The notes beneath the pieces are model-generated. The model was not told where the DNA came from and did no database searches. It was given only the letters and a program-made list of their open reading frames with translations. Below, piece by piece: positions 9,420-55,606 of a DNA stretch of 64,000 nt. The stretch's first letter is position 1. Every line of letters begins with the position of its first letter. The stretch spans positions 3,013,001-3,077,000 of the forward strand of contig JAWNZC010000234.1 in assembly GCA_035771165.1 (NCBI GenBank). Reading direction: 5' to 3'. Source of the DNA: Paragorgia papillata. Taxonomy: Eukaryota > Cnidaria > Anthozoa > Scleralcyonacea > Coralliidae. The translations under genes and the position numbers were made by a program.

Positions 9420-11113
9420 TCTCTCTTTCACTTTGCCCTTTTCATTGGTGGGAAGATGACTTGGGAAATGTCTCTCAGTCAACCTTGCTGGTAATTCAAG
9501 AGATGGAAGACCTGGTCGTTTTTTTTATGTGAAATTGCCAATAAGCTTCTTGGCAAGCTCAACCCGAAAGTTCTTCAAACTTCGCCTTTCATGATTTGGT
9601 GACTCAACCTCTAAAATATGGCCATTCACCACGCAGCGATCAAGAAGCTCAAAAAATACTCTATGCCACCATTTTCTTGATCTCAACTTGATGCCATAGT
9701 AAGATTTCATTTGATCACTTCGATCAACGCCTCCCATATATTTATTATAGGAGGAAATAAGGAGAGGACATTCCACATCTTGTTGCTCACCATCTTTTTT
9801 TCTTCTCTTCACCGATTTTGTTGCTTCTCCAGAAACAACCTCCAATGTGGATACAACATTAACTGGCCTGCTGTCCATCCAGGTAACAGCTGTGATTGGA
9901 CCTTTTCTCCTAAATACGCAAGTACCCCTTTCAAACTTGTTGTTTGATTTCTTGTCATACATTTCTTTTGGGAAGCCCCATCGACCTGATTTCAAAGTTC
10001 CACATGAAGTAAAGAAGTTGTCAAAATAGACTTCGTGCCACTTTCCATATAGCATAGAGCACAGCTTTGTTACTACAGAAAATCCTAAGTCACGTGTTAC
10101 CCCATCTCCACTTTTTCCAGTGTAGATGTCGAAATCACCGATATAACCATTTATACTGTCTGCTCTGCACCACATCTTTATTCCTCTTTTGATGGGTTTC
10201 TTGGGCATGTACTGTTTTAGGGAACTTCTGCCTTTGAACTTGATCATAGCTTCATCAATTGCAACCTGTTTGTGGGGCATATATTTGGATAGGAAGTTCG
10301 CACGAATGGATTCCAGGAATGGTCTCACTTTGAACAGTTTATCAAAACCTGGAGTTCCCCTAGCTGGCATCTTTGAATTATCATTCAGATGCAAGTATCG
10401 TGTAATTGTTTCAAAGCGAGCAACAGTCATTATTCTGGCTAATGCTGGCACCCCCAATATCCAGTCCTGGGACCAATAATCACGAATACTATTGACAGGA
10501 TGCATAGACATGGCAACACAAAGGCCAAAATAGGCTAACAGTTCGGTGTCAGTAACTCTTTCAAATACGCTTGGATCCTTACCCGCAGCTGTGAGACATT
10601 GTAATGCATACTTGTTTGTCACAAACAATGTCATTGACAATGTTCATGCTAAACATTAGCAAGAAAAATTCAAGGGCTGATGCTGCACTTGGAAGTATTG
10701 TTACTGCACCCACATGCTGTCGAAACTCACGCCGGCGAATCTCTGGTTCTTCTTCGACTTCCATCTCCTGATCAGACTCCTCATCATCGCTTTCATTTTC
10801 CAATCTCCATTTTGTTTTGCTAAAATCATAATAGGATGGTATTCTGCCCATAGGAGACTCAACATCTGGGTTTGTTGAAAGTTTCCTCTTCATCAGCGAT
10901 CTCCACAGCGTGTAGGATGTCAAGAACCTCAATATTTTCATCTATTTCGGCTATTTCACGATCGATATCAGCTTGTTCAGCATCAATATCTGGCTCAGAG
11001 TGTTCAGACGAAATATCTGAACCCTCCCCATCGAACGGAATGTCATAATTTTCATCCAAAAGATCGATTATTTCGCCCACTGTAAATGTAGCCTGCAGAC
11101 ATTGTTGACTCAC
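9420..11113 (-). pseudogene. piggyBac-type transposase, frameshifted
   Basis: DDE transposase of the piggyBac/PGBD superfamily (DDE_Tnp_1_7), which cuts and pastes at TTAA. The main piece (10,640 to 9,525) carries the three catalytic aspartate contexts in order: VAIDEAMIKFKGR, VYFDNFFTS and GGVDRSDQMKSYY. The acidic N-terminal region is in two other frames (11,113-10,859 and 10,941-10,579), and the C-terminal arginine-rich tail (RPGLPSLELPARLTERHFP) continues in another frame after a run of eight A at about 9,528. So there are at least three frame breaks, some in homopolymers. The C-terminal Cys-rich zinc finger normally ending this family is not visible; the frame ends near 9,415 in a short tandem duplication. 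No TTAA-flanked terminal repeats could be assigned. Confidence 0.85.
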
Positions 11114-23460: not shown

Positions 23461-25456
23461 TCAGGCCTTGTAAACGTTATGCTTACGCGATTTCTTAAGA
23501 GCAAACTCGTTAATTACCGACATGTCAATGCTACGCAGAAGGCCATTTTCAATACTAAGCAGAACAAAGCCGTTCAGTCTCTTCTGCGTCATGCATGATC
23601 TGAGCTGATTCTTTATCAGCTTAAGTTTGGAGAACGACCGTTCTCCAGAACAGTTCGAAATCATCAGACTGAGATAAATACGGAATGCGATGACAGTGTT
23701 CGGAAATACAGTTTCCAGATTTTTGGCCACAAGAAGCCTGTACATGCGCAATTCCAACGAATCCACGTTCAATCTGACGTCGTCATCATCTTTCGTTATG
23801 ACGGCTTCGTCATCAGAGTCATCAGAGTCGATCGTAGATGGGGCTGAAGAAGTTGCAGGAACTGAAGCTGTAGTCACTTCCAATGATTTCGTAACGAAGT
23901 CTGTGTTAAGAAAACCAGAAAACTGTAACAATTCGTCAGACAGACTGGCTTCTAGATCTGTGGGGTATGCCTCTTGAAGGATCTTCGCACTTTTGATCAC
24001 TTCTTCAACTGAAAGGTCCTTGAGCTTTCGCGCAGGAAGCCAAACCTTGCAGCAATACCAGTGTATGCACCCAGTCGTTTCCGCAACTCAGCATCAATGC
24101 TGTCGATTATGACCAGGAACGTACCCGTACGGAACTTACTGGCTGGGGTCTGCGACAATTCAGGCGCTGATCCTGGTTCGTCGTAACGGCGATTTCGTTG
24201 ACGCACACGTTTAACTTCGTCCGTGTACTGGTCGCATTCAATGAGCTTCTTCCCCTTAGCTTCAAACCCATCAAATCTTGTCCGCAGCTTACGGATGAAT
24301 TCAATCAGCGATTCATAAATTTTAACGGCGGTGTTAAGGTCTTGGTCGGCTGATGCAGGATGTGGTGCCACAGAACTTCAAGAATTCCGGACTCGAGTCG
24401 GTTCATGTAGGCGGCAAGTCCACCAGCTTCCTCTCGGGTTTCGGGTTTCTCCTCATCGTCATCAGCGATTTCTTCGAGAGCGGCGTTAATTTCGTCATAT
24501 CCCATAACTAGAGCCTTTGTGGCGTCTGCGCGTGCCGACCAGCGAGTATCTGACATGCGCTTCACTGTTGGAAGGCCTTTGCTTGAAAGTTGATCCATCA
24601 TAACTTTCCAGCGATGCGTTGAAGCAGAAAAAAAGGAGTATAGTCGTTGGAGAAAACTGAAGAATCCAACGGCCAGCTGACAACAACCCACAGCAGACTG
24701 ACCAACGAGATTGAGGGAATGCGCGGCGCAGGGCACATACGCTGCCAGGTTACATTGTTGCCGAATAATGGCCTGCATGCCATTGTATTTCCCACTCATA
24801 TTGCTCGCATTATCGTATGACTGTCCGCGGCAATCAGCAACATCGATGTGATGGGTTTTAAAAAATTTGAGCAAGCTTTCCGCTAGTTCTTTTCCAGTGT
24901 GACCTTGCATGTTAAGGAAGGTTAAATATCGTTCAACAGGACCCGAAGGCAAAACGTACCGAAGAATACAGGTGAGTTGGTCAACATGGGAAATATCATG
25001 GGTCGAGTCTACAGGAACCGAGAAATACTTGGCGGACTTTACTTCCGTAATGATATACTCGAGCACACGATTTGCCATCAAATCGATGAATACTTCACAA
25101 ATTGTCTTCGACAGATAGGAAGTGTGACCCCGTCCCTTGTTTGCGTTATGGTTGATGTGTTGTGCTAGGAATGGATCGAATTTGGCTAGCAGTTCCAATA
25201 TACCCAAGTAGTTGCCGTTTGTGGGTGATCCGACAACCTCGTTTGAGCCGCGAAAGGGTAAACCGCGCTCAGATAGGAAACGGATAGTTTCTACCACCCG
25301 CTCTAGCACAGCACGCCAATAATCGCGCTCGTCATTGGTCTGTCTAACCAATTCCGAATCAACACGGCAGCCAGCATCACTGCGTTGGAGAAGCTGAATC
25401 ATGGCCTCTCGGTGCATTGCACTTCTTTCGTGACGTGGAATAGAATAGGAAGCGTG
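23461..25456 (-). pseudogene. hAT transposase (ZMYM1-like), C-terminal three quarters
   Basis: Continues the gene that begins at 39,477. Reads HASYSIPRHERSAMHREA and the DUF4371/RNase H-like region (KYFSVPVDSTHDISHVDQ; GQSYDNASNMSGKYNGMQA; PCAAHSLNLVG), then in other frames (24,371-23,997 and 24,000-23,461) the linker and the hAT dimerisation motif NCSGERSFSKLKLIKNQLRS. Domain order is that of TTF/zf-MYM-type hAT transposases. At least two frame breaks (near 24,340 and 24,000). The split from the N-terminal part is caused by the 13.3-kb insertion with a 6-bp duplication. Confidence 0.85.
25451..25456. other. Polinton-like target-site duplication, left copy
   Basis: AGCGTG, repeated directly at 38,794-38,799 immediately after the element's last base. 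Six bases is the Polinton/Maverick hallmark. Confidence 0.85.
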
Positions 25457-25499
25457 AGTAGTGATACCCCCCACTATGGAGTACAAAGGGATGCCGCCT

Positions 25500-25745
25500 C
25501 ATTAAATATTCAATTTTTAATTATTCATGCTCAGGCTCCTTTAGGACCTTCTAACCTCATTATGCATACGTCATTCATTCTCAGGCTCCTTTAGGACCTC
25601 CAAACCCTAACCTCATTAAATATTCAACTTATTGTTTATTCATTCTCAAGCTCCTGTGGGACCCTCTAACCCTATTATGCATACGTCATTATTTCTCAGG
25701 CTCCTTTGGGACCCTCTAACCCTAACCTTTGACTCCCTATGAGCC
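25500..25745. repeat. Subterminal repeats, left arm
   Basis: About four units of ctcaggctcctttaggacc followed by tctaaccctaacc and gcatacgtcatt elements. Mirrored at about 38,510-38,745. The position just inside the terminus suggests a role in end recognition or replication; inference. Confidence 0.75.
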
Positions 25746-25846
25746 GCTCAGGCAAATGCTAGAGTTGATTCTGTTATAAGTACTAAAGTACGGTGTTGTA
25801 TATATACACTTTACCCCAACAGTTCGTACGGTAAACGTTTGACAAG

Positions 25847-26224
25847 ATGGATATTATTTACGATGAGTTAAAGAAAAATAACATTAATATCGACAGAGAC
25901 ACTTTGTCGTATTACCTTAAACATTTTCTAGAACAACATAGAGTACTATTCGACAGTATCAGTGAACAAATACCCAGAATATGTCTTCAACACGTTTATG
26001 AAGAGATGAACCCCAACAATTTTGGTCGAATTATCGCTTATCTAACCCTAGTGTATAGAGTAAACGAAACCTTGGATGAAGAATCAATTCGAGAAGCCGT
26101 AAGGAGAACGATCAATGATTTAAAATGTATTGACTTGTCTAAATACAGACGAATTATTATTAGTTCTCCACGGTTGCTAGGGTACCTTCTACTCAGACTG
26201 ATATTTGCATATTTCCACGTGTAA
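25847..26224 (+). CDS. Bcl-2-like protein, left arm, 125 aa
   Basis: ATG 25,847 to TAA 26,224, small, alpha-helical and without a signal peptide. The segment NPNNFGRIIAYLTLV (about residues 53-67) looks like a BH1 motif (an N-[WF]-G-R core followed by a hydrophobic helix), preceded by an amphipathic helix and followed by a charged helix and a hydrophobic C-terminus (LLGYLLLRLIFAYFHV) that could be the last core helix or a membrane anchor. Bcl-2 homologues block host apoptosis and are carried by many large and mid-size DNA viruses. A TATA-like ttgtatatatacac lies some 50 bp upstream. Copy in the right arm is nearly identical (one residue differs, Q to E). Family assignment is by motif only. 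Confidence 0.5.
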   Translation: MDIIYDELKKNNINIDRDTLSYYLKHFLEQHRVLFDSISEQIPRICLQHVYEEMNPNNFGRIIAYLTLVYRVNETLDEESIREAVRRTINDLKCIDLSKYRRIIISSPRLLGYLLLRLIFAYFHV

Positions 26225-26415
26225 AACCTCATTAGGAGTGAGTTGTGTGTGGATAATAAGGGGTATTAATGTGTGGGCATGTTCAGGCCAAAAGTTGATT
26301 AGTGGGGGCGTTACCATAGCGAATCTCATTCGAATTCTGTTCTCTTACGAGTAACAACGAAAGTCTTTTGGAGTGTGATTTGGAACGTTTGTTGAAAGCC
26401 GTTTAGAACTGAGAC

Positions 26416-26900
26416 ATGAATACTCGACGATCTAGAAACCGTAAATGTGAAGCACGGGGAAATCAAGTACATGTCGATGAAGTGTCCGTTGTTGAATACC
26501 AAAAGCTGTTTCCATTATTAGAGACCATATACACAGACGCCGTCGCCACTGAAATCGAGAAATTATGCGAGGAAAAATGTTGTGGTTGTAAGATTGATCA
26601 CCCCAGTCAGCGCCAGCATGATTGCCTCATGATGACCAAGGAAGAAAGATGGGAATTGTACTGCAAAGATGCCATTGCATTTGTAAACGATAAACGATTA
26701 ATTTGGGACGAGTTTATTGAAGCGACAAGAGTCTTTAACACTCTTGGTGTCATAAAGACGCTCTTGAACGTTTAAGACAATTAGAAAACACTTCAGAGTC
26801 CATATTGTATGCACTGTGGCAATTGTATAGTAATGCGGAGAATCCAGAAATGAAATGTATTCAAGGATATCTTTCTTACTGGAGAGAAAGTAATAAATGA
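26416..26900 (+). CDS. Cys/His-motif protein, left arm
   Basis: ATG 26,416; the first frame stops at 26,775 (119 aa). A basic N-terminus (NTRRSRNRKCEARGN) precedes a compact Cys/His cluster, C-x3-CC-x-C then IDHPSQRQHDC, which could bind a metal. I recall similar HPSQ-x-x-H-x-C clusters in unnamed proteins linked to mobile elements of invertebrates, but cannot name the family. After about 26,740 the coding signal moves to another frame (WCHKDALERLRQLEN ... YWRESNK, ending at 26,900). The same shift is in the right arm, so it predates or was copied in the duplication. It lies about 190 bp downstream of the Bcl-2-like gene, same strand. Confidence 0.5.
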
Positions 26901-27196
26901 TTTTCTTGAATAAATGTTGTGTTTTGTCTTAAATATGGCTAATATTTGTAGACACACTTTATATTTTTATCCTAAATCTTGTCTGAAGGAATATAGCGGG
27001 TTTTGAACATTCTAAATGATTGAATCTGCTGAGATAACTTAACTCGAATATTATCTGAATAATCTATGAATATTATAATAGGGTTAGAACCTAACAGAAT
27101 AAATCATCTTAGAATCATACCTAACTAAACCTTCGTTTATAAGTGGAGGAAGATAGAATGAGGAATCACTTTGAGAAGCTGAACTTAGGATACGTA
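26901..27196. other. Non-coding, left arm
   Basis: AT-rich, no ORF. Mirrored in the right arm. Confidence 0.4.
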
Positions 27197-28601
27197 CAGT
27201 ACTGCCTAGAAGTAACCTAACAAAATCCGCGGTGATCCTAGGTCGAACCTCGGTTCAACCTAGGATCAACCGCGGGCCTGCCTAGGATCAACCTTGGTTG
27301 ATCCTGGGGCGAACCTAGGGCGAACCTAGGGTGAACCTAGGTTCGCCCGAGCGAACCTCAACCGCAAACGCATACGAGAAATATACGATCACGGTAGTCG
27401 GAAGAAGTCGCTAATTTCCGACGCTTGGCGTCCTTTGCCCGTTCCAAGTTCAGGTTGTTCACTTCACTGTCTTCGCTAACGCAATATGGGAAAGTTATCG
27501 CAATACGCCAGGGGCCAGAGGCGAGATCTCGGTATTAAAGCGGGCTGAAAAATTTCTCATATAAACACTCGCAGCCGGGCTGGAGTCCTGTTTCAAACGT
27601 CGAATTTGTCATGTGTCGAATCAAAAACATCGACCGCTTTGGTCGGTAAAACGACCAAAGTGCGACGTGGTTTCAAACGTCGAATTTATCATGTGTCCAA
27701 ACAAACTGGGACGAGATTTAAGTTCAGGACTTCAGTACTTTTAAAATGCAATCCGAACGAGTTCTTTAATACGGGAGGCCGATTACGTTCGACACATGAT
27801 AAATTCGGACGTTTGAAACCGACGTCGAATTTGGTCGAACTTTGTCAACCGTCATTAGATTCGACACATGATAAATTCGACGTTTGAAACCGACGTCGAA
27901 TTTGGTCGAACTTTGTCAACTGTCATTAGATTCGACACATGATAAATTCGACGTTTGAAACGGGCCTACCGACGCCGTCTATTGTTTGGCACTTGAAATA
28001 CTTGAAATCATCTCGGTAAGCGGGATGAATTTTTCCAAAAAAACGCGAGCCAGAAATTATTACTTGATATAAATTAGGAGCTGATTAGTCTATTGTTTGT
28101 GATAATTTCATACGACTACAGCATTATAACACGGCATAATTGTGTCAAGAGACAAGATGCTACTTTTCTTCGGCTTTTTAAAGTAAAACGCGTCTTAGCA
28201 ACGCTAGTTATTTGGAATAAAAATCAGTGCTATTTGGTAAATGCAACCACGAAATCGTCGAGACTGTGTGCAGACATGCAAAAGAGCGACTTTTAGAATA
28301 CTTTGGTGATTAAAAATTATTCATTTCCCTTGCTTCGGACTGTAAACTTGTATAAGATAGTTGTCCGTGACGTCGGCATGTCATGTTTATTTTGCTGCCC
28401 ACTTAATGGTCGGACGAGGTCGGAACCCGAAGTGTTTGTTCAACCGCAGTTTTTCTCTTGCGGTTCGACGTGTCACCGCAACCTCACCGCTACCTCACCG
28501 CTACCTCACCGCAACCTCACCGCAACCTCACCGCAACCTCACCGCTAATCCACCGCCACCGCACCGCAACCGCACTGTTAGGTTACTTCTAGGCAGTACT
28601 G
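27197..28601. mobile_element. TA-flanked 1.4-kb element full of iterated repeats, left arm
   Basis: Bounded by perfect 26-bp inverted repeats (CAGTACTGCCTAGAAGTAAC at the left end) and by TA on both sides, as in Tc1/mariner-type non-autonomous elements. Inside are three classes of iterated motif: CCTAGG-centred palindromes (27,230-27,360), about six copies of the ACGTCGAATTTATCATGTG motif in both orientations (27,595-27,960), and a run of ACCGCAACCTC units (28,470-28,580). Open frames through it are made by the repeats and are not proteins. Mirrored at 35,656-37,059. Confidence 0.7.
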
Positions 28602-28679
28602 TACGAATCAAGCCGAAAAGTCGTGAGCTCAGAAAAAACATATTGGCACATAGCAATGAAAAGCTTATATATGAATAAT

Positions 28680-28770
28680 ATATTAGATATTTGCTTCGCT
28701 TTTGAATATTATATTTGATATTTGCTTCGCTTTTGAATATTATATTAGATATTTGGTTCGCTTTTGTGAT
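28680..28770. repeat. 31-bp tandem repeat, left arm
   Basis: Three units of gaatattatattagatatt followed by tgcttcgctttt. Mirrored at about 35,490-35,580. Confidence 0.8.
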
Positions 28771-28959
28771 GTTTATACGTATAGGAACCCTTTGAAGTTA
28801 AAAAGAGTCGCCTTGAATGGTAGCGAATCGTTATTGTAAACTTAGAAGAACATTATTCGACAGCATCGTTGCTAAAGATTATAGAGTGGTGTATAATAAA
28901 CGTGTGCTTGTAAATAACTTTGATACTTTACCTTACGGATTTTAACTTGTGTGTTTGTA

Positions 28960-29150
28960 AATAACTTTAAACTTTTGTGTATGTTTGTAAATAGGAAACT
29001 GAAATTATACATTTTTTATAAACACTATTCATTTGTGTTATTCTGGTGTGAGGGATAGGAAGTGAGATTCAATGATTCAATCTTAGGATTCAATGATTCA
29101 ATCTTAGGATTCAATGATTCAATCTTAGGATTCAATGATTCAATCTTAGA
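28960..29150. repeat. Spacer-like segment plus short 21-bp array, left arm
   Basis: The segment tttgtaaataggaaactgaa ... ttctggtgtgagg is the reverse complement of the palindrome's central spacer and its flank; it is followed by about four units of gattcaatgattcaatctta. The same unit, in the opposite direction, borders the ATPase gene at 31.6-31.9 kb, so the RING-ATPase block in each arm is itself bracketed by inverted repeats. Confidence 0.75.
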
Positions 29151-29520
29151 GGGCTTAATGAGGGTCTTTTAGAGCACAGGGGTAGGGGTGGGGGTCTTGA
29201 GTAAATGAGTAAATACTTTATATGGCCCTGGGGGCCTTTTTCGTGGCCCTGTGGCCCTATCGCTTGAATACACTCCCTGTCCCCTCTGATCCCCCACGCA
29301 TTCGCCTAACCCGCTTTTTCTCCCTTTTGAGTTAATTTAGAAAAATTCTGAACAAATATGAAGAAGATTGCGTATGTGGGTTGCAAAATATTACGTTGTA
29401 TAATAAATATTACTGGGAGTATATTTCGTTAGGAGTATATTAGTTTTAGGAGTATATTTCGTTTGTTTTCTTTCAATGATTTGGTGGCTCTTAAAAGAGC
29501 CGTTTTTGTTTTGTTTTGGG

Positions 29521-29945
29521 TTATATCGCAACCCAGAGACAACCACATGTTGTTGACTGCCCGCAAAACATTGCAGCATTCACATTCAAACCATTAGTTA
29601 TCCTCCTTAACTCCTTCACGCACGCCTCGTGGACCGTAGACTGACAGCAGGATGTTTTTAACAGGTTCTCTTGTCCCTCAGTTTGGGCTAAGCATAAGAA
29701 ACAAACCTTGGAAGCATCGTACTTCCTTCGGCAATAGGCGCACCGAACTTCTTCAGCTTGGGATGAAGAAGTGATCATCCACTTTTGCAAACATCTTGCA
29801 TGGTTAAAATGTTTACAACAGGGAGTTGATAACGCCCATCGTTCTCCTCTTTTGATACTCTCCAAACAGAAGTGACACTCTTCTTCTTCTGTGTCTGGAT
29901 TCTCAGCGGTTATCAAGAACCCAAACAGTTCAAAATGTTTTATTT
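29521..29945 (-). pseudogene. Double RING-like protein, left arm, frame broken
   Basis: Same protein as the right-arm copy at 34,262-34,735 but with one extra T in a T run near 29,935, which puts the natural start out of frame. The readable part has CHFC ... CCKHFNHARC ... CAYC (a RING-type C/H pattern) and a second half-cluster CFLC ... CCQSTVHEAC. Zinc-binding RING proteins commonly act as E3 ubiquitin ligases; virus-borne ones often modify host defence. That role is inference. It is transcribed toward the outside of the element, divergent from the Cys/His protein. Confidence 0.6.
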
Positions 29946-30764
29946 GGTAGAATTAGATCTGGTGATGGTAGTACCCCAACTTGATCCATGCTCATCCGCA
30001 ATGCATATGTTTGAGTGTATTTGTGATGTTATGTGGTTCGTTTCCGTATTTATGAGGTTGGAACATGTTCACTTTAATTATCATTAATCATTACATGTCA
30101 AATTGAAAGTTTTGGTGTTCTATTTTCTTTAGTAATCTGAAGACATTAGTTATAGACCACTTCATGTGTGTGTGTATGTGTTTCAGAACGTATACGCCAA
30201 CTCTATCGATTAAACCCACGCGACCAAACAATTATGCACGCCCTAAATCTATGAATGTTTTTCCTATTGATGTCAATATTTACAGAAACTTATCAAAATA
30301 CTATATTTTTAATACTAAAGATATAATTTAGAGCTTGCATTACCACACACCGACTCCTAACTCTTTTTATGCAATAGTTTACTATAATATAACTCAACAA
30401 CACCTTTTATACGAGAGTTGATAAGCGGCGGCTTACACATTTAACCTGTACCAAAGGAATATCAGAAAGACATACACATTATTTATAAATACTTTATTGA
30501 ACTTCAGCATAGTACAGAAGATGATGTTTCAACGATTCAACAGTAATTTTAATTCTTATAATTGGCGTCATTCCAATACTACGGCGTTTTAGATTGATTG
30601 TAGGAGTACATTAGTTGGTTTTGTTTGTTTTTTTGTAATACTGGTTTCTTTCGTTTGATGAAATCTAAACATATATTCAAAATGCACCGTCCTATATAGC
30701 CTTTAATAAACCATTATCAGTATGTCTCAATGTCGCTTTTCTCAGGTATATTCAGCACTTATTC
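29946..30764. other. Non-coding between RING and ATPase genes, left arm
   Basis: AT-rich, no ORF. Mirrored at 33,496-34,261. Confidence 0.4.
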
Positions 30765-31583
30765 TTATACCCTGGGTTGATATACATAATGTGTATCAGT
30801 CGGAAATATCCCGGATCTTACTCGGATTTCATCGGGACATGTCGGCGTGAGATCGACAAACAGGCAAGAATACGGCTCTTTAGTCGCCATCTGGTAGGCT
30901 TGCTGGAAAAACTTTGTGTTGTCGGGATACAACTGTTTGGCAAGATGAGTCACTTGACTTGCATCACGAACATTTTTTGTTAGGACAAAGTAACTAGCGT
31001 TGAGAGAGATGGTACGATGGTCTTTGCTTTGATGAAATAAGTTTTGCACGATGATGGGATTTCTACCATGATGGGATTTCTTCGTGAATAGTTTGGCAAT
31101 AATCGTATCTTTTTCACCCATCATATCATCAATGATAAACAAATTTCTTATTTGGGGATTAATACTATCCAATATAGATTCGGATAAACCTTGCACAAAC
31201 TGAATCCCAGGAATAAGAAGTTCCATTTTAGCAAACGTGTCTTGGTACTCAGAATAAAAATAAATTATATTTTCTGGGACAGGGTCGATCATGATTTGGG
31301 CGTTGACTAACAATTCCTTGACAAAGCTTGTCTTCCCAGTCTTGGTCCCTCCAGAGACCAAGAGTCCAAAGGGATGTGTTAATTGTATCGAGTACGTTTT
31401 TTGACTCTCAGGGGTGAATGTAGTTGTCATAGCAGTAAATGGGGCAGATGTTGTTACCCTATCACTGATGGACCTTTTCTGATGAAAAGATCTCATATGG
31501 CGTAGACGATTACTTGATGTAGCGAATGATTTTTCGCAGACTTCACAAACGTAAGACATGTTCACCAAGTGACTGTCAATCAT
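30765..31583 (-). CDS. C2H2 zinc finger plus P-loop packaging-type ATPase, left arm, 272 aa
   Basis: ATG 31,583 to TAA 30,765, intact. Residues about 12-34 form a C2H2 finger (YVCEVCEKSFATSSNRL ... H-x3-H). After a linker comes HPFGLLVSGGTKTGKTSF (Walker A, about residues 75-90), a Y-S-E-Y motif, and LFIIDDMMGEKDTI (Walker B with a double aspartate, about residues 150-160). A compact single-domain ATPase of this type is found in Polintons and related viruses, where it belongs to the FtsK/HerA-like (A32) group that moves DNA into capsids. A C2H2 finger in front is unusual and could aid DNA contact. The 21-bp repeat array begins about 40 bp upstream of the start. Assignment by motifs; related P-loop families cannot be excluded. 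Confidence 0.6.
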   Translation of the reverse strand: MIDSHLVNMSYVCEVCEKSFATSSNRLRHMRSFHQKRSISDRVTTSAPFTAMTTTFTPESQKTYSIQLTHPFGLLVSGGTKTGKTSFVKELLVNAQIMIDPVPENIIYFYSEYQDTFAKMELLIPGIQFVQGLSESILDSINPQIRNLFIIDDMMGEKDTIIAKLFTKKSHHGRNPIIVQNLFHQSKDHRTISLNASYFVLTKNVRDASQVTHLAKQLYPDNTKFFQQAYQMATKEPYSCLFVDLTPTCPDEIRVRSGIFPTDTHYVYQPRV

Positions 31584-31624
31584 AAACTGATGTCACTCTT
31601 TCACGCAACTGTTTTTTATAAGAT

Positions 31625-31850
31625 TAAATCACTAAATCCTAAGATTGAATCATTGAATCCTAAGATTGAATCATTGAATCCTAAGATTGAATCATTGAAT
31701 CCTAAGATTGAATCATTGAATCCTAAGATTGAATCATTGAATCCTAAGATTGAATCATTGAATCCTAAGATTGAATCATTGAATCCTATGATTCAATCAT
31801 TGAATCCTAAGATTGAATCATTGAATCCTAAGATTGAATCATTGAATCTC
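31625..31850. repeat. 21-bp tandem array, left arm
   Basis: About eleven units of attgaatcctaagattgaatc, with one variant unit (cctatgattcaatc). The array is divisible by three and so gives an open frame of SLNPKIE heptads that starts with a start codon beside the ATPase gene; I do not consider it a proven gene. The right arm has about fifteen units. Confidence 0.85.
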
Positions 31851-31894
31851 ACCTCCTACCCCTCACACCAGAATAACACGAATCAATAGTGTTT

Positions 31895-31957
31895 ATAAAA
31901 AATGTATAATTTCAGTTTCCTATTTACAAACATACACAAAAGTTTAAAATTATTTAC
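31895..31957. other. Centre of the palindrome, 63-bp spacer
   Basis: The flanks aatcaatagtgttt (to 31,894) and aaacactattgatt (from 31,958) are complementary. The spacer itself matches, in the same orientation as the 31.6-kb array, the segment next to the short arrays at 28.97-29.04 kb and 35.2-35.3 kb. Confidence 0.85.
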
Positions 31958-31994
31958 AAACACTATTGATTCGTGTTATTCTGGTGTGAGGGGT

Positions 31995-32320
31995 AGGAGG
32001 TGAGATTCAATGATTCAATCTTAGGATTCAATGATTCAATCTTAGGATTCAATTGATTCAATGATTGAATCATAGGATTCAATGATTCAATCTTAGGATT
32101 CAATGATTCAATCTTAGGATTCAATGATTCAATCTTAGGATTCAATGATTCAATCTTAGGATTCAATGATTGAATCATAGGATTCAATGATTCAATCTTA
32201 GGATTCAATGATTCAATCTTAGGATTCAATGATTCAATCTTAGGATTCAATGATTCAATCTTAGGATTCAATGATTCAATCTTAGGATTCAATGATTCAA
32301 TCTTAGGATTTAGTGATTTA
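31995..32320. repeat. 21-bp tandem array, right arm
   Basis: Reverse complement of the left-arm array with about fifteen units, three variant units and one collapsed unit (near 32,050). The difference in copy number shows that the two arms have evolved separately since the duplication. Confidence 0.85.
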
Positions 32321-32361
32321 ATCTTATAAAAAACAGTTGCGTGAAAGAGTGACATCAGTTT

Positions 32362-33495
32362 ATGATTGACAGTCACTGGGTGAACATGTCTTACGTTTGT
32401 GAAGTCTGCGAAACATCATTCGCTACATCAAGTAATCGTCTACGCCATATGAGATCTTTTCATCAGAAAAGGTCCATCAGTGATAGGGTAACAACATCTG
32501 CCCCATTTACTGCTATGACAACTACATTCACCCCTGAGAGTCAAAAAACGTACTCGTTAAGAAATAGAAAATGGCCGCCCGTGTTTATATAGCCTGATGC
32601 AAACACGAGAGTGAATTGGGAGAATTTGAAAGTTTATGTGAACCCGAGCCGTAGGCGAGGGTTTACATAAGTACTTTCGAATTCTCCCAACTCACTCGAG
32701 TGTTTGCATCAGGTTATATAAACACGGGCGGCCATTTTCTATTTCTTTTATGAAATAAGGGTAGGAAATGTGCCGTGACATCACAACCGTGTTTGCATAG
32801 CCTGATATAAACACGGTAATTGACCAATCACAGCGTGCGTAAGATGCAACCTATTTTATAAATACAATTAACACATCCCTTTGGACTCTTGGTCTCTGGA
32901 GGGACCAAGACTGGGAAGACAAGCTTTGTCAAGGAATTGTTAGTCAACGCCCAAATCATGATCGACCCTGTCCCAGAAAATATAATTTATTTTTATTCTG
33001 AGTACCAAGACACGTTTGCTAAAATGGAACTTCTTATTCCTGGGATTCAGTTTGTGCAAGGTTTATCCGAATCTATATTGGATAGTATTAATCCCCAAAT
33101 AAGAAATTTGTTTATCATTGATGATATGATGGGTGGTGAAAAAGATACGATTATTGCCAAAACTATTCACGAAGAAATCCCATCATGGTAATCTCAGTGT
33201 AATTTATATCGTGCAAAACTTATTTCATCAAAGCAAAGACCATCGTACCATCTCTCTCAACGCTAGTTACTTTGTCCTAACAAAAAATGTTCGTGATGCA
33301 AGTCAAGTGACTCATCTTGCCAAACAGTTGTATCCCGACAACACAAAGTTTTTCCAGCAAGCCTACCAGATGGCGACTAAAGAGCCGTATTCTTGCCTGT
33401 TTGTCGATCTCACGCCGACATGTCCCGATGAAATCCGAGTAAGATCCGGGATATTTCCGACTGATACACATTATGTATATCAACCCAGGGTATAA
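32362..33495 (+). pseudogene. C2H2 plus P-loop ATPase, right arm, disrupted
   Basis: Mirror copy of the gene at 30,765-31,583. A 305-bp fold-back insertion (32,557-32,861) splits it between the zinc finger and Walker A, bringing in a stop. The downstream piece (32,870-33,495) keeps GGTKTGKTSF and LFIIDDMMG, then has a 3-bp insertion (an extra G residue), an extra A that shifts frame near 33,162 and a rearranged short repeat (left arm: gaaatcccatcat twice; right arm: once plus new sequence). The end is intact (HYVYQPRV). Inactive as sequenced. Confidence 0.75.
32557..32861. mobile_element. 305-bp fold-back insertion in the right-arm ATPase gene
   Basis: Absent from the left arm, so it inserted after the arms formed. 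Long hairpin: agaaatagaaaatggccgcc ... gcaaacacgag pairs with ctcgagtgtttgc ... ggcggccattttctatttct; loop gagccgtaggcgagg. A second, partial arm (ccgtgtttgcatagcctgat) follows. No clear target duplication. Confidence 0.8.
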
Positions 33496-34261
33496 GAATA
33501 AGTGCTGAATATACCTGAGAAAAGCGACATTGAGACATACTGATAATGGTTTATTAAAGGCTATATAGGACGGTGCATTTTGAATATATGTTTAGATTTC
33601 ATCAAACGAAAGAAACCAGTATTACAAAAAACAAACAAAACCAACTAATGTACTCCTACAATCAATCTAAACGCCGTAGTATTGGAATGACGCCAATTAT
33701 AAGAATTAAAATTACTGTTGAATCGTTGAAACATCATCTTCTGTACTATGCTGAAGTTCAATAAAGTATTTATAAATAATGTGTATGTCTTTCTGATATT
33801 CCTTTGGTACAGGTTAAATGTGTAAGCCGCCGCTTATCAACTCTCGTATAAAAGGTGTTGTTGAGTTATATTATAGTAAACTATTGCATAAAAAGAGTTA
33901 GGAGTCGGTGTGTGGTAATGCAAGCTCTAAATTATATCTTTAGTATTAAAAATATAGTATTTTGATAAGTTTCTGTAAATATTGACATCAATAGGAAAAA
34001 CATTCATAGATTTAGGGCGTGCATAATTGTTTGGTCGCGTGGGTTTAATCGATAGAGTTGGCGTATACGTTCTGAAACACATACACACACACATGAAGTG
34101 GTCTATAACTAATGTCTTCAGATTACTAAAGAAAATAGAACACCAAAACTTTCAATTTGACATGTAATGATTAATGATAATTAAAGTGAACATGTTCCAA
34201 CCTCATAAATACGGAACGAACCACATAACATCACAAATACACTCAAACATATGCATTGCGG
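33496..34261. other. Non-coding between ATPase and RING genes, right arm
   Basis: Mirror of 29,946-30,764. Nothing coding seen. Confidence 0.4.
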
Positions 34262-34735
34262 ATGAGCATGGATCAAGTTGGGGTACTACCATCACCAGAT
34301 CTAATTCTACCAAATAAAACATTTGAACTGTTTGGGTTCTTGATAACCGCTGAGAATCCAGACACAGAAGAAGAAGAGTGTCACTTCTGTTTGGAGAGTA
34401 TCAAAAGAGGAGAACGATGGGCGTTATCAACTCCCTGTTGTAAACATTTTAACCATGCAAGATGTTTGCAAAAGTGGATGATCACTTCTTCATCCCAAGC
34501 TGAAGAAGTTCGGTGCGCCTATTGCCGAAGGAAGTACGATGCTTCCAAGGTTTGTTTCTTATGCTTAGCCCAAACTGAGGGACAAGAGAACCTGTTAAAA
34601 ACATCCTGCTGTCAGTCTACGGTCCACGAGGCGTGCGTGAAGGAGTTAAGGAGGATAACTAATGGTTTGAATGTGAATGCTGCAATGTTTTGCGGGCAGT
34701 CAACAACATGTGGTTGTCTCTGGGTTGCGATATAA
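34262..34735 (+). CDS. Double RING-like protein, right arm, 157 aa
   Basis: ATG 34,262 (a second ATG lies two codons on) to TAA 34,735. A short leader (MSMDQVGVLPSPDLIL) precedes an acidic stretch, then the first cluster C-HF-C ... CC-K-H-FNHA-R-C ... C-AY-C (about residues 44-95), close to a RING/RINGv cross-brace, and a second cluster CFLC ... CC-x3-VH-x2-C (about 102-132). No membrane span. The likely role is as E3 ubiquitin ligase or zinc adaptor acting on host proteins; inference. This is the intact one of the two copies; the left-arm copy has a one-base shift at its start. Confidence 0.6.
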   Translation: MSMDQVGVLPSPDLILPNKTFELFGFLITAENPDTEEEECHFCLESIKRGERWALSTPCCKHFNHARCLQKWMITSSSQAEEVRCAYCRRKYDASKVCFLCLAQTEGQENLLKTSCCQSTVHEACVKELRRITNGLNVNAAMFCGQSTTCGCLWVAI

Positions 34736-35099
34736 CCCAAAACAAAACAAAAACGGCTCTTTTAAGAGCCACCAAATCATTGAAAGAAAACAAACGAAAT
34801 ATACTCCTAAACTAATATACTCCTAACGAAATATACTCCCAGTAATATTTATTATACAACGTAATATTTTGCAACCCACATACGCAATCTTCTTCATATT
34901 TGTTCAGAATTTTTCTAAATTAACTCAAAAGGGAGAAAAAGCGGGTTAGGCGAATGCGTGGGGGATCAGAGGGGACAGGGAGTGTATTCAAGCGATAGGG
35001 CCACAGGGCCACGAAAAAGGCCCCCAGGGCCATATAAAGTATTTACTCATTTACTCAAGACCCCCACCCCTACCCCTGTGCTCTAAAAGACCCTCATTA

Positions 35100-35290
35100 A
35101 GCCCTCTAAGATTGAATCATTGAATCCTAAGATTGAATCATTGAATCCTAAGATTGAATCATTGAATCCTAAGATTGAATCATTGAATCTCACTTCCTAT
35201 CCCTCACACCAGAATAACACAAATGAATAGTGTTTATAAAAAATGTATAATTTCAGTTTCCTATTTACAAACATACACAAAAGTTTAAAG
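35100..35290. repeat. Short 21-bp array plus spacer-like segment, right arm
   Basis: Mirror of 28,960-29,150: about four units of the 21-bp repeat followed by sequence equal to the palindrome spacer (aaaaaatgtataatttcagt and on). Confidence 0.75.
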
Positions 35291-35655
35291 TTATTTACAA
35301 ACACACAAAGTTAAAATCCGTAAGGTAAAGTATCAAAGTTATTTACAAGCACACGTTTATTATACACCACTCTATAATCTTTAGCAACGATGCTGTCGAA
35401 TAATGTTCTTCTAAGTTTTACAATAACGATTCGCTACCATTCAAGGCGACTCTTTTTAACTTCAAAGGGTTCCTATACGTATAAACATCACAAAAGCGAA
35501 CCAAATATCTAATATAATATTCAAAAGCGAAGCAAATATCAAATATAATATTCAAAAGCGAAGCAAATATCTAATATATTATTCATATATAAGCTTTTCA
35601 TTGCTATGTGCCAATATGTTTTTTCTGAGCTCACGACTTTTCGGCTTGATTCGTA

Positions 35656-37059
35656 CAGTACTGCCTAGAAGTAACCTAACAGTGCGGTTGCGGTGCGGTG
35701 GCGGTGGATTAGCGGTGAGGTTGCGGTGAGGTTGCGGTGAGGTTGCGGTGAGGTAGCGGTGAGGTAGCGGTGAGGTTGCGGTGACACGTCGAACCGCAAG
35801 AGAAAAACTGCGGTTGAACAAACACTTCGGGTTCCGACCTCGTCCGACCATTAAGTGGGCAGCAAAATAAACATGACATGCCGACGTCACGGACAACTAT
35901 CTTATACAAGTTTCCAGTCCGAAGCAAGGGAAATGAATAATTTTTAATCACCAAAGTATTCTAAAAGTCGCTCTTTTGCATGTCTGCACACAGTCTCGAC
36001 GATTTCGTGGTTGCATTTACCAAATAGCACTGATTTTTATTCCAAATAACTAGCGTTGCTAAGACGCGTTTTACTTTAAAAAGCCGAAGAAAAGTAGCAT
36101 CTTGTCTCTTGACACAATTATGCCGTGTTATAATGCTGTAGTCGTATGAAATTATCACAAACAATAGACTAATCAGCTCCTAATTTATATCAAGTAATAA
36201 TTTCTGGCTCGCGTTTTTTTGGAAAAATTCATCCCGCTTACCGAGATGATTTCAAGTATTTCAAGTGCCAAACAATAGACGGCGTCGGTAGGCCCGTTTC
36301 AAACGTCGAATTTATCATGTGTCGAATCTAATGACAGTTGACAAAGTTCGACCAAATTCGACGTCGGTTTCAAACGTCGAATTTATCATGTGTCGAATCT
36401 AATGACGGTTGACAAAGTTCGACCAAATTCGACGTCGGTTTCAAACGTCGAATTTATCATGTGTCGAACGTAATCGGCCTCCCGTATTAAAGAACTCGTT
36501 CGGATTGCATTTTAAAAGTACTGAAGTCCTGAACTTAAATCTCGTCCCAGTTTGTTTGGACACATGATAAATTCGACGTTTGAAACCACGTCGCACTTTG
36601 GTCGTTTTACCGACCAAAGCGGTCGATGTTTTTGATTCGACACATGACAAATTCGACGTTTGAAACAGGACTCCAGCCCGGCTGCGAGTGTTTATATGAG
36701 AAATTTTTCAGCCCGCTTTAATACCGAGATCTCGCCTCTGGCCCCTGGCGTATTGCGATAACTTTCCCATATTGCGTTAGCGAAGACAGTGAAGTGAACA
36801 ACCTGAACTTGGAACGGGCAAAGGACGCCAAGCGTCGGAAATTAGCGACTTCTCCGACTACCGTGATCGTATATTTCTCGTATGCGTTTGCGGTTGAGGT
36901 TCGCTCGGGCGAACCTAGGTTCACCCTAGGTTCGCCCTAGGTTCGCCCCAGGAATCAACCGAGGTTGATCCTAGGCAGGCCCGCGGTTGATCCTAGGTTG
37001 AACCGAGGTTCGACCTAGGATCACCGCGGATTTTGTTAGGTTACTTCTAGGCAGTACTG
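35656..37059. mobile_element. TA-flanked iterated-repeat element, right arm
   Basis: Mirror of 27,197-28,601, same 26-bp ends and flanking TA, 1 bp different in length. The inside again holds the CCTAGG palindromes, the TCGAATTTATCATGTGTCG repeats and the GCGGTGAGGTT run. Confidence 0.7.
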
Positions 37060-37354
37060 TACGTATCCTAAGTTCAGCTTCTCAAAGTGATTCCTCATTC
37101 TATCTTCCTCCACTTATAAACGAAGGTTTAGTTAGGTATGATTCTAAGATGATTTATTCTGTTAGGTTCTAACCCTATTATAATATTCATAGATTATTCA
37201 GATAATATTCGAGTTAAGTTATCTCAGCAGATTCAATCATTTAGAATGTTCAAAACCCGCTATATTCCTTCAGACAAGATTTAGGATAAAAATATAAAGT
37301 GTGTCTACAAATATTAGCCATATTTAAGACAAAACACAACATTTATTCAAGAAA

Positions 37355-37842
37355 ATCATTTATTACTTTCTCTCCAGTAAGAAAGATATCCTTGAATACA
37401 TTTCATTTCTGGATTCTCCGCATTACTATACAATTGCCACAGTGCATACAATATGGACTCTGAAGTGTTTTCTAATTGTCTTAAACGTTCAAGAGCGTCT
37501 TTATGACACCAAGAGTGTTAAAGACTCTTGTCGCTTCAATAAACTCGTCCCAAATTAATCGTTTATCGTTTACAAATGCAATGGCATCTTTGCAGTACAA
37601 TTCCCATCTTTCTTCCTTGGTCATCATGAGGCAATCATGCTGGCGCTGACTGGGGTGATCAATCTTACAACCACAACATTTTTTCCTCGCATAATTTTCT
37701 CGATTTCAGTGGCGACGGCGTCTGTGTATATGGTCTCTAATAATGGAAACAGCTTTTGGTATTCAACAACGGACACTTCATCGACATGTACTTGATTTCC
37801 CCGTGCTTCACATTTACGGTTTCTAGATCGTCGAGTATTCAT
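37355..37842 (-). pseudogene. Cys/His-motif protein, right arm, frame broken
   Basis: Mirror of 26,416-26,900 with two extra A residues in A runs (near 37,682 and 37,697), so the frame leaves the protein just before the Cys/His cluster and picks it up afterwards in another frame. Otherwise identical as far as I can read, including the later shift near 37,515. Confidence 0.6.
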
Positions 37843-38033
37843 GTCTCAGTTCTAAACGGCTTTCAACAAACGTTCCAAATCACACTCCAAAAGACTTTCG
37901 TTGTTACTCGTAAGAGAACAGAATTCGAATGAGATTCGCTATGGTAACGCCCCCACTAATCAACTTTTGGCCTGAACATGCCCACACATTAATACCCCTT
38001 ATTATCCACACACAACTCACTCCTAATGAGGTT

Positions 38034-38411
38034 TTACACGTGGAAATATGCAAATATCAGTCTGAGTAGAAGGTACCCTAGCAACCGTGGAGAACTAATA
38101 ATAATTCGTCTGTATTTAGACAAGTCAATACATTTTAAATCATTGATCGTTCTCCTTACGGCTTCTCGAATTGATTCTTCATCCAAGGTTTCGTTTACTC
38201 TATACACTAGGGTTAGATAAGCGATAATTCGACCAAAATTGTTGGGGTTCATCTCTTCATAAACGTGTTGAAGACATATTCTGGGTATTTGTTCACTGAT
38301 ACTGTCGAATAGTACTCTATGTTCTTCTAGAAAATGTTTAAGGTAATACGACAAAGTGTCTCTGTCGATATTAATGTTATTTTTCTTTAACTCATCGTAA
38401 ATAATATCCAT
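38034..38411 (-). CDS. Bcl-2-like protein, right arm, 125 aa
   Basis: ATG 38,411 to TAA 38,034. Differs from the left-arm copy by one residue (glutamate for glutamine at about position 28). Same BH1-like NPNNFGRIIAYLTLV and hydrophobic C-terminus. Open in both arms while the neighbouring gene is broken in one. Confidence 0.5.
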   Translation of the reverse strand: MDIIYDELKKNNINIDRDTLSYYLKHFLEEHRVLFDSISEQIPRICLQHVYEEMNPNNFGRIIAYLTLVYRVNETLDEESIREAVRRTINDLKCIDLSKYRRIIISSPRLLGYLLLRLIFAYFHV

Positions 38412-38509
38412 CTTGTCAAACGTTTACCGTACGAACTGTTGGGGTAAAGTATATATATACAACACCGTACTTTAGTACTTATAACAGAATCAACTCTAGC
38501 ATTTGCCTG

Positions 38510-38745
38510 AGCGGCTCATAGGGAGTCAAAGGTTAGGGTCCCAAAGGAGCCTGAGAAATAATGACGTATGCATAATAGGGTTAGAGGGTCCCACAGGAGC
38601 TTGAGAATGAATAAACAATAAGTTGAATATTTAATGAGGTTAGGGTTTGGAGGTCCTAAAGGAGCCTGAGAATGAATGACGTATGCATAATGAGGTTAGG
38701 AGGTCCTAAAGGAGCTTGAGCATGAATAATTAAAAATTGAATATT
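38510..38745. repeat. Subterminal repeats, right arm
   Basis: Mirror of 25,500-25,745: units ggtcctaaaggagcctgag with gggttag stretches. Confidence 0.75.
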
Positions 38746-38793
38746 TAATGAGGCGGCATCCCTTTGTACTCCATAGTGGGGGGTATCACTACT

Positions 38794-38799
38794 AGCGTG
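38794..38799. other. Polinton-like target-site duplication, right copy
   Basis: AGCGTG, matching 25,451-25,456. Confidence 0.85.
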
Positions 38800-54230: not shown

Positions 54231-55606
54231 CGCTCACCCAAATACAAATCGCAAAAACTGCTATTGAAATCACCATTGACTCAGGAGCGTCAACAAATAT
54301 CCTTGATCGCAATGCCTTTCAAGCAATTAAAAAGAAAAACAAGAACATTTAACTATCATCAACTCAAACGAAGATCTACGCTTATAATGCTCTTCAACCC
54401 TTACCGATTGTCGGGAAATGTTGCTTACCTGTTGAATCGAAAGGCAAAAATACCGTTGGTACATTCTGCGTTGTTGAAGGAACGTCTGGATCACTCTTGG
54501 GTAACGAAACGGCAGCGGAATTGGGTATCCTGAGAATCGAAGTCAACAAAACCGAAAGTGAAGGAAACGCAAATTTAACTGCAAACACTCACAAGCTTTT
54601 AGAAAAATATCCTCAACTTTTCGATGGTATTGGTTGCTTGGAAGATTACGAACAGCAACTCCATATTGATCCCAATGTCACACCCGTGGCACAACGACCG
54701 CGAAGAATACCTTTTCACCTTCGAAAGCAAGTAGCTGAAAAACTGGTTGAATTGGAAGAGCTAGACATCATCGAACCAGCCGAGGGACCAACTACCTGGG
54801 CTTCACCAATAGTTGCAGCTCCAAAGCCCCACAACTCCAATGAAGTAAGAGTATGTGGTGACTATCGACGTCCCAATCAAGCCCTTCTTCGTGAAAGACA
54901 CCCAATACCAACCGTTGACGAGATGATGGAAGATATGGCTGGAGCGGTAATGTTTTCCAAGCTAGATCTCAAAGCTGGATATGATCAGATAGTCCTGGAT
55001 ATGATCGAAGTCAACAAAACCGAAAGTGAAGGAAACGCAAATTTAACTGCAAACACTCACAAGCTTTTAGAAAAATATCCTCAACTTTTCGATGGTATTG
55101 GTTGCTTGGAAGATTACGAACAGCAACTCCATATTGATCCCAATGTCACACCCGTGGCACAACGACCGCGAAGAATACCTTTTCACCTTCGAAAGCAAGT
55201 AGCTGAAAAACTGGTTGAATTGGAAGAGCTAGACATCATCGAACCAGCCGAGGGACCAACTACCTGGGCTTCACCAATAGTTGCAGCTCCAAAGCCCCAC
55301 AACTCCAATGAAGTAAGAGTATGTGGTGACTATCGACGTCCCAATCAAGCCCTTCTTCGTGAAAGACACCCAATACCAACCGTTGACGAGATGATGGAAG
55401 ATATGGCTGGAGCGGTAATGTTTTCCAAGCTAGATCTCAAAGCTGGATATGATCAGATAGTCTTGGAGGAAAAGTCGCGAAATCTAACCACATTTTGCAC
55501 CCATAAAGGACTTTTCCGTTACAAAAGGTTGCCATTTGGTCTTTCCAGTGCCTCCGAAGTCTTCCAAAACGCGATACAGCAAGCTCTCCAAGGATTAACC
55601 GTGTGA
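54231..55606 (+). pseudogene. Gypsy protease and RT N-terminal part with internal duplication
   Basis: Aspartic protease motif IEITIDSGASTNIL (54,264-54,305), a frame break near 54,350, then SLLGNETAAELGILRIE. The RT begins with AQRPRRIPFHLRKQV and WASPIVAAPKP, VRVCGDYRRPNQAL, and FSKLDLKAGYDQI. Positions 54,536-55,003 are repeated at 55,004-55,471, in frame, so these RT motifs occur twice. Then TTFCTHKGLFRYKRLPFGLS and a stop at 55,604. Confidence 0.85.
54536..55471. repeat. 468-bp exact tandem duplication in pol
   Basis: Two copies with a period of 468 bp (156 codons), one base different at the end (agtcctgg / agtcttgg). The reading frame is kept through the junction (...QIVLDMIEVNK...). 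Confidence 0.9.

What the first reader, a model, noticed from the sequence alone, without database searches (positions are those of the whole stretch)
25457..38793. A Polinton-like element that is one giant palindrome
Seen: two arms (6.44 and 6.84 kb) mirror each other around a 63-bp spacer; the outer ends carry AG... termini and a perfect 6-bp duplication (AGCGTG) in a hAT gene. Known: Polintons/Mavericks make 6-bp duplications and normally carry polymerase B, integrase, protease and capsid genes between short inverted ends. Here nothing but duplicated end genes is left. Inference: a defective genome, formed when a linear, protein-primed DNA folded back or recombined so that one end was copied twice, then inserted by an integrase supplied in trans. 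That would be a copy-back type of defective element for this group, which I do not know to have been described.
Basis: partly seen in the sequence, partly recalled or inferred. Interest (0 to 1): 0.92.

Follow-up and report, generated by a model that had tools for sequence, protein, structure and literature searches.

The report
Folded-back palindromic Polinton family
A 13-kilobase jumping element in an unnamed eukaryote's genome is two mirror-image copies of one end of a virus-like Polinton, probably made when a growing DNA strand folded back and copied itself, and many more mirror-image elements of this kind lie in the same genome, so fold-back copying is likely a regular way in which these elements generate new forms.

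Summary
In detail: 25457-38793 is a near-perfect palindrome with a 6-bp target duplication in a hAT gene. It is not a lone oddity. Of 17 other fetched elements that share its end sequence, 10 are palindromes (some degraded), 3 are full-length Polintons with 0.5-0.74 kb inverted ends, 4 are unresolved. Four close inverted polymerase pairs were fetched; all are palindromes of the opposite Polinton end. In capped genome-wide lists, neighbouring gene copies lie almost always in the one arrangement that a palindrome predicts: 34 of 35 for the ATPase, 20 of 22 integrase, 4 of 4 polymerase. The window's centre carries a base-level footprint of fold-back: the left arm and a 53-nt loop run collinear with unfolded Polinton DNA, then jump to the other arm at an 11-nt inverted match (10 of 11). 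A 1.4-kb transposon sits at the same mirrored base in both arms; the site is empty in all 21 other arms where it was found. My searches listed no paper on palindromic Polintons.

The parts
25451..25456 (.). target site duplication AGCGTG, left
38794..38799 (.). target site duplication AGCGTG, right
25457..31899 (+). left arm; starts AGTAGTGATACCCCCC
31953..38793 (-). right arm; same terminus
31900..31952 (.). 53-nt loop, collinear with unfolded Polinton sequence in C311 (L038:533)
31889..31899 (+). fold-back landing site GTGTTTATAAA
31953..31963 (-). inverted partner TTTACAAACAC (10 of 11 pair), presumed 3' end that primed the copy
25847..26224 (+). 125-aa ORF, tentative Bcl-2-like (Pfam E 0.02, below cut-off), left copy
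38034..38411 (-). same ORF, right copy
26416..26897 (+). ORF161 gene of the palindrome family, frame broken here
37359..37842 (-). ORF161, right copy, frame broken
27197..28601 (+). 1405-bp TA-flanked transposon in the left arm
35656..37059 (-). same transposon at the mirrored base of the right arm (1404 bp)
29524..30001 (-). RING-finger gene, left copy, frame interrupted
34256..34735 (+). RING-finger ORF, 159 aa, right copy
30765..31583 (-). C2H2 finger + FtsK/A32-type ATPase, open frame, left copy
32362..33495 (+). ATPase, right copy, interrupted by the 309-bp insertion and a frameshift
32557..32865 (.). 309-bp MITE-like insertion, right arm only
31619..31848 (.). 21-bp tandem array next to the centre, left
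32004..32326 (.). 21-bp tandem array next to the centre, right
29066..29149 (.). internal copy of the 21-bp array; mirror copy at 35106-35189

Best explanation
The element is two mirror-image copies of one end of a Polinton joined through a 53-nt loop, and it most likely arose when a replication strand that had grown inward from that end folded back at a short inverted match and copied itself, after which it was probably inserted by an integrase from full-length relatives. Shown: the palindrome, the target duplication, the loop collinear with unfolded Polinton DNA, the 10-of-11 inverted match where the sequence jumps, the sibling palindromes, and palindromes of the other end with their own junctions. 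Inferred: that the strand was started by protein priming at the terminus; that the resulting hairpin was then copied to double-stranded DNA; that integrase and polymerase came from other elements. Also inferred: the palindrome lineage keeps its two arms alike because new rounds of fold-back, or repair between arms, copy one arm onto the other. That would explain why a 1.4-kb transposon and a distinct end sequence are present in both arms of this element.
For: Junction: window 31870-31963 runs collinear with C311 (L038:533; both arms of C311 carry it) and less closely with full-length C38, C261 and C124, then departs after TTTACAAACAC to continue as the right arm; 10 of 11 paired, chance about 8e-6 at a given place. 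The one mismatch keeps the unfolded base, as a primer would. Two polymerase-end palindromes (C311, C261b) jump inside the ATPase gene at a 7-nt inverted match with a 96-nt loop; both halves of the match occur exactly in the unfolded ATPase genes of the window, C285, C77 and C77b. C236 jumps in the first codons of the ATPase and lands about 370 bp back. Orientation: neighbours closer than 12 kb lie as a palindrome predicts in 34 of 35 (ATPase), 20 of 22 (integrase), 4 of 4 (polymerase) and 9 of 10 (ORF161) cases. Symmetric transposon: filled in both window arms, empty in the 21 arms of 14 other elements where the site was found. Bases unique to one element in the ORF161 region: 34 in both arms, 16 in one arm only, over 8 elements. 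Tips: 94-100% alike within 6 of the 7 palindromes for which I compared both tips (C413a 71%), 24-94% between different palindromes.
Against: No replication intermediate was seen. The unfolded match to the window loop is best in C311, itself a palindrome (unfolded at that spot); the match to the non-palindromic C38 is only about 79% there. No non-palindromic element holding all the window arm's genes was found. In the ORF161 region C139-left is nearer to C399, and C340-left nearer to C413b, than to its own other arm. C311 and C261b share one junction, so it may be one event plus recombination; the full-length C38 and C124 genes and C445 each miss one base of that inverted match, and C261 and C340 lack its upstream half. 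The C236 junction has about 16 nt of filler and little pairing. In-place gene conversion between arms could also make the transposon symmetric.
Confidence: 0.8

Rival explanations
1. Long inverted ends grown in the chromosome: gene conversion between the two ends of an integrated element extended the inverted repeats inward until almost nothing unique was left, as proposed for Galileo.
For: TIR extension by recruitment of internal sequence is proposed for Galileo, and the same passage says that expansion of inverted repeats has been reported for Polintons (PMC3573991, passages). It would also make a transposon insertion symmetric. Mixing of subfamilies is seen here too. Several elements keep a unique middle (C9 about 1.6 kb, C139 about 0.9 kb), as partly extended ends would.
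Against: It does not predict a loop collinear with unfolded DNA that ends exactly at an inverted match, nor different junctions in different elements.
Confidence: 0.15
2. Assembly or sequencing artefact (a fold-back read collapsed into the contig).
For: Many 1-bp arm differences lie in base runs and could be consensus errors. No reads were available to me.
Against: Different flanks on the two sides, perfect 6-bp duplications at 12 of 15 fetched palindromes, private insertions in one arm, and further pairs at many loci.
Confidence: 0.02
3. A chance head-to-head pair of two truncated insertions of the same family.
For: Nested or abutting Polinton insertions do occur here (C413b, C445).
Against: One target duplication pair, near-identical arms over 6.4 kb, a loop collinear with unfolded DNA, and the strong orientation bias.
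Confidence: 0.02

Closest known systems
Polinton/Maverick elements
   Same: AGTAGT ends, 6-bp target duplications, related ATPase; full-length members with family-B polymerase (PF03175) and rve integrase in the same genome
   Different: No polymerase, integrase or putative capsid gene in the window element; the whole element is one palindrome instead of having short inverted ends
Foldback-type transposons (Galileo, FB)
   Same: Very long inverted repeats, tandem sub-repeats, exchange between copies (PMC3573991, passages seen)
   Different: Different transposition machinery (P superfamily, by that paper's abstract); no replication-type junction with a loop of unfolded sequence is mentioned in the passages I saw
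Symmetric or copy-back defective genomes of adenoviruses and other protein-primed linear DNAs (recalled; searches listed no paper on them)
   Same: One genome end duplicated in mirror image by strand fold-back
   Different: Here they are integrated with target duplications, multi-copy, and carry their own gene set
Palindromic rDNA of Tetrahymena (recalled)
   Same: Palindrome made by intrastrand pairing of short inverted repeats
   Different: Programmed host process, not a mobile element

Membership tests
Polinton/Maverick | 6-bp target site duplication | tested here: met
   AGCGTG; perfect at 12 of 15 fetched palindromes, window included: 10 by script, C399 and C53 by eye; C342 5 of 6, C413b truncated, C236 ends not fetched
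Polinton/Maverick | (AGT)n or (AG)n termini | tested here: met
   AGTAGTGATACC at both ends; (AGT)2 ends are reported for vertebrate Mavericks (PMC8097293, passage)
Polinton/Maverick | protein-primed family-B polymerase and rve integrase in the element | tested here: not met
   tblastn with the C261 polymerase and integrase proteins finds nothing in the window element; both present in C261, C124 and C38. So it is a non-autonomous derivative, not an autonomous member
Polinton/Maverick | packaging-type ATPase related to full-length members | tested here: met
   87% identity to C261 over 209 residues; dS about 0.6, dN/dS 0.12-0.15 against C261, C124, C38 and C445
Polinton/Maverick | capsid genes | tested here: not met
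   no match to the putative capsid and protease genes of C261 (L23c, L23d, L23e, PRO) in the window element or in 9 of the 10 other fetched palindromes of this family; C413b, nested in a Polinton, has an integrase and an L23e match outside its ends
Copy-back defective genome | mirror arms with a loop of parental sequence and priming complementarity at the junction | tested here: met
Copy-back defective genome | arises during replication and depends on a helper | not testable with these tools
   needs replicating molecules
Foldback transposon | long inverted repeats over most of the element | tested here: met
Foldback transposon (Galileo) | P-superfamily transposase or its termini | not tested
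   ends and duplication are Polinton-like instead

The most novel reading that the evidence does not exclude
The Polintons of this genome behave as a split, partly multipartite virus-like system. Mirror-image elements made from the polymerase end (polymerase in both arms), double-integrase elements (which appear to hold capsid and ATPase genes once between the two integrases) and ATPase/ORF161 palindromes like this one complement each other and spread together. The palindromes would be self-renewing satellites whose arms are recopied at each replication.
Probability: 0.2. Interest if true: 0.93.

Novelty: new variant of a known kind. Interest (0 to 1): 0.8.

Why it matters
Polintons are thought to replicate like adenoviruses, but replication has hardly been observed (recalled). 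Base-resolved fold-back junctions from both ends, frozen in a genome, would be a record of strands growing inward from each terminus and make the replication model testable. They also suggest a route by which a mobile element can keep throwing off, and keep alive, mirror-image satellites with an intact gene, and a process that seeds genomes with large palindromes. A survey that required integrase and polymerase 4-40 kb apart (PMC8097293, passage seen) would miss such elements.

Tried and rejected
Rejected: assembly artefact; chance head-to-head insertion; ordinary long inverted ends (the three full-length relatives have 0.5-0.74 kb ends). Kept as rival: in-chromosome extension of inverted ends. 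Led nowhere: a viral-contig scan with the polymerase gave no relative. Literature, in an open-access library only and judged by listings (titles, abstract openings) except for the five papers named in the report: searches on Polintons or Mavericks with palindromes, defective, fold-back or long inverted repeats and on protein-primed or adenovirus palindromes listed nothing on palindromic Polintons; one search was on foldback transposons. The search for the 1.4-kb transposon elsewhere in the genome did not complete.

Results against my reading: C139 and C340 arms are not nearest neighbours in the ORF161 region; 4 of 17 related elements (C321, C440, C445, C77b) are not plain palindromes; C9 and C139 have unique middles, and C53, C413a and C413b are degraded; C413a tips are only 71% alike; the 20 integrase pairs look asymmetric (capsid-like gene listed once in 11 of 20, ATPase once in 7 of 20). 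The integrase pairs and 32 of the 34 ATPase pairs were judged from gene coordinates only (C285 and C77 were fetched). One polymerase pair 12.8 kb apart (C72) was not fetched.

Labels: the putative capsid and protease genes of C261 have no Pfam hit; those names are by position and recall. The Bcl-2 label is below Pfam's cut-off. The labels L22c, L23a, L23c, L23d, L23e, L23g, X and ORF161 are mine.
Full report
What is there. The window lies in contig C234 of a 618-Mb assembly of 473 contigs, a eukaryote that I could not name. The element at 25457-38793 has arms of 6443 and 6841 bp around a 53-nt loop, ends AGTAGTGATACC on both sides and a perfect AGCGTG duplication. Joining the flanks gives a 400-codon open hAT frame across the site. 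Each arm holds, from outside in: a 125-aa ORF with a weak Bcl-2 match, ORF161 (broken here), a RING gene, and a C2H2 + FtsK/A32-type ATPase that starts near the centre and reads outward. The ATPase frame is open in the left arm and interrupted in the right. Of the C261 Polinton genes tried, only the Bcl-2-like ORF, the ATPase and the last 24 residues of L22c have matches in it; polymerase, integrase, protease and putative capsid genes have none.

It is one of many. The outer 1.2 kb finds 118 matches in the genome, many as inverted pairs (40 of 2207 candidates scored). I fetched 17 other elements. Ten are palindromes: C9, C285, C77, C340, C399, C139, C342, C53, C413a and C413b. Their longest arm matches are 0.7-5.7 kb at 94-99.8%; C9 and C139 keep a unique middle, and C53, C413a and C413b are degraded. 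Three are full-length Polintons (C261, C124, C38) with inverted ends of 740, 564 and 531 bp and polymerase, integrase, ATPase and putative capsid genes. Four are not plain palindromes (C321, C440, C445, C77b). Perfect 6-bp duplications are seen at 12 of 15 fetched palindromes, counting the window and four polymerase-end ones: 10 by script, C399 and C53 by eye in the output; C342 matches 5 of 6; C413b is truncated and the C236 ends were not fetched.

Palindromes of the other end. A polymerase search scored 104 places (capped; 1001 candidates). The 4 inverted pairs closer than 12 kb among them were fetched, and all start at the polymerase end: C311 (99.8% over 4468 bp), C261b (99.7% over 6100 bp), C236 (99.5% over 4832 bp), C467 (98.5% over 4360 bp).

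Genome-wide orientation control. Of neighbouring copies less than 12 kb apart, those in the arrangement that a palindrome predicts make up 20 of 22 for integrase (144 scored places), 4 of 4 for polymerase (104), 34 of 35 for the ATPase (140) and 9 of 10 for ORF161 (40). All lists are capped, so these are lower bounds, and 32 of the 34 ATPase pairs and all 20 integrase pairs were judged by coordinates only. In 26 of the 34 ATPase pairs both frames are open; none of the 34 has a listed polymerase and one has a listed integrase within 9 kb. The integrase pairs differ: a capsid-like gene was listed once in 11 of 20 and never twice, and the ATPase once in 7 of 20. They are probably double-ended elements with a long unique middle.

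The junction. Downstream of a gene that I call L22c, unfolded Polinton DNA in C311 reads ...AATAGTGTTTATAAA...TTTACAAACAC and then goes on towards L22c. The window has the same sequence through TTTACAAACAC but then continues as the mirror of what lies upstream of GTGTTTATAAA. The two 11-mers pair at 10 of 11 positions; chance is about 8e-6 for a given place. The mismatch keeps the unfolded base on the 3' side, as expected if that end was a primer and not a copy. C311 and C261b jump inside the ATPase gene: an inverted match of 7 nt and a loop of 96 nt that is ordinary ATPase sequence in unfolded relatives; C311 still carries the unfolded bases at the primer end. Both halves of that match occur exactly in the unfolded ATPase genes of the window, C285, C77 and C77b; C38, C124 and C445 each miss one base, and C261 and C340 lack the upstream half. 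C236 jumps in the first codons of the ATPase and lands about 370 bp back, with about 16 nt of filler; its loop matches unfolded C445 at 350 of 350 bp. The window strand would have come from the ATPase side and the C311, C261b and C236 strands from the polymerase side, so strands growing inward from both ends are implied.

The arms are copied from each other. A 1.4-kb transposon with inverted ends and TA flanks lies at the same mirrored base in both window arms; the empty site is intact in the 21 arms of 14 other elements where the exact site was found; arms that lack the site tell nothing. The 309-bp insertion is in one arm only and so is probably younger. In the ORF161 region the two window arms have no substitution between them over 957 columns and are at least 1.46% from every other arm. 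Over eight elements, 34 element-specific bases are in both arms and 16 in one arm. Tips are 94-100% alike within six of the seven palindromes for which both tips were compared (C413a: 71%), but 24-94% between different palindromes, and C342 carries a tip 92% like that of full-length C38. Against this, C139 and C340 arms are not nearest neighbours. Fresh fold-back explains most of this simply; conversion between integrated arms is not excluded.

Not just debris. ATPase of the palindrome family against C261, C124, C38 and C445: dS about 0.6 and dN/dS 0.09-0.15. Between C285, C340, C77 and C77b: dS 0.02-0.09, ratios 0.08-0.44. The window against other family members gives 0.46-0.59. ORF161 is open over 161 codons in 19 of 25 arms, with a pooled between-element ratio of about 0.5-0.6 from few changes. 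Its relatives (39 proteins; 26 aligned) share a C..GC..DHPS..H.CLM core, zinc-binding by my guess. tblastn found ORF161 in none of the three full-length Polintons fetched. Selection may in part have acted before these genes entered the palindromes.

Literature. Vertebrate Mavericks have (AG)3 or (AGT)2 ends and 6-bp duplications, and that survey required integrase and polymerase 4-40 kb apart (PMC8097293, passages). Extension of inverted repeats is proposed for Galileo, and that paper says that expansion of Polinton inverted repeats has been reported (PMC3573991, abstract, passages and reference list; the works it cites were not read), so longer inverted ends in Polintons are not new in themselves. 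A protein-primed fungal plasmid is discussed with snap-back and panhandle intermediates (PMC1864894, passages). No word beginning with palindrom occurs in the main text of PMC8097293, PMC6431247 or PMC11071296. Symmetric adenovirus defective genomes are recalled only.

Verdict. A nucleotide-resolved case of fold-back palindrome formation in Polintons, frequent in this genome and from both ends. I rate it a new variant of a known kind.

Noticed in passing
L022:6280-6364, L030:47-259, L026:3259-3343, L042:144-741: Polintons and one palindrome carry tRNA-Leu genes (TAA and CAA anticodons) between L22c and the ATPase; in C236 a mirrored pair flanks the centre.
   Followed up: partly
C311:3020915-3032433 (L037, L038): The C311 palindrome sits in a target that is itself a short palindrome: about 24 bp on each side are mirror images.
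   Followed up: no
L010/L011, L012/L013, L014/L015 centres: Centres of several palindromes are arrays of self-complementary short repeats (GAGTAACTC/GAGTTACTC), which may themselves be fold-back sites.
   Followed up: partly
window 54536-55467: A near-identical tandem duplication of a 468-bp unit inside a frame that looks Gypsy-like by eye; not tested.
   Followed up: no
window 9525-10640: A 371-aa ORF that looks like a piggyBac-type transposase by eye; not tested.
   Followed up: no
C413:737301-747200 (L028): A palindrome (C413b) is nested in a full-length-type Polinton next to the end of its integrase frame.
   Followed up: partly
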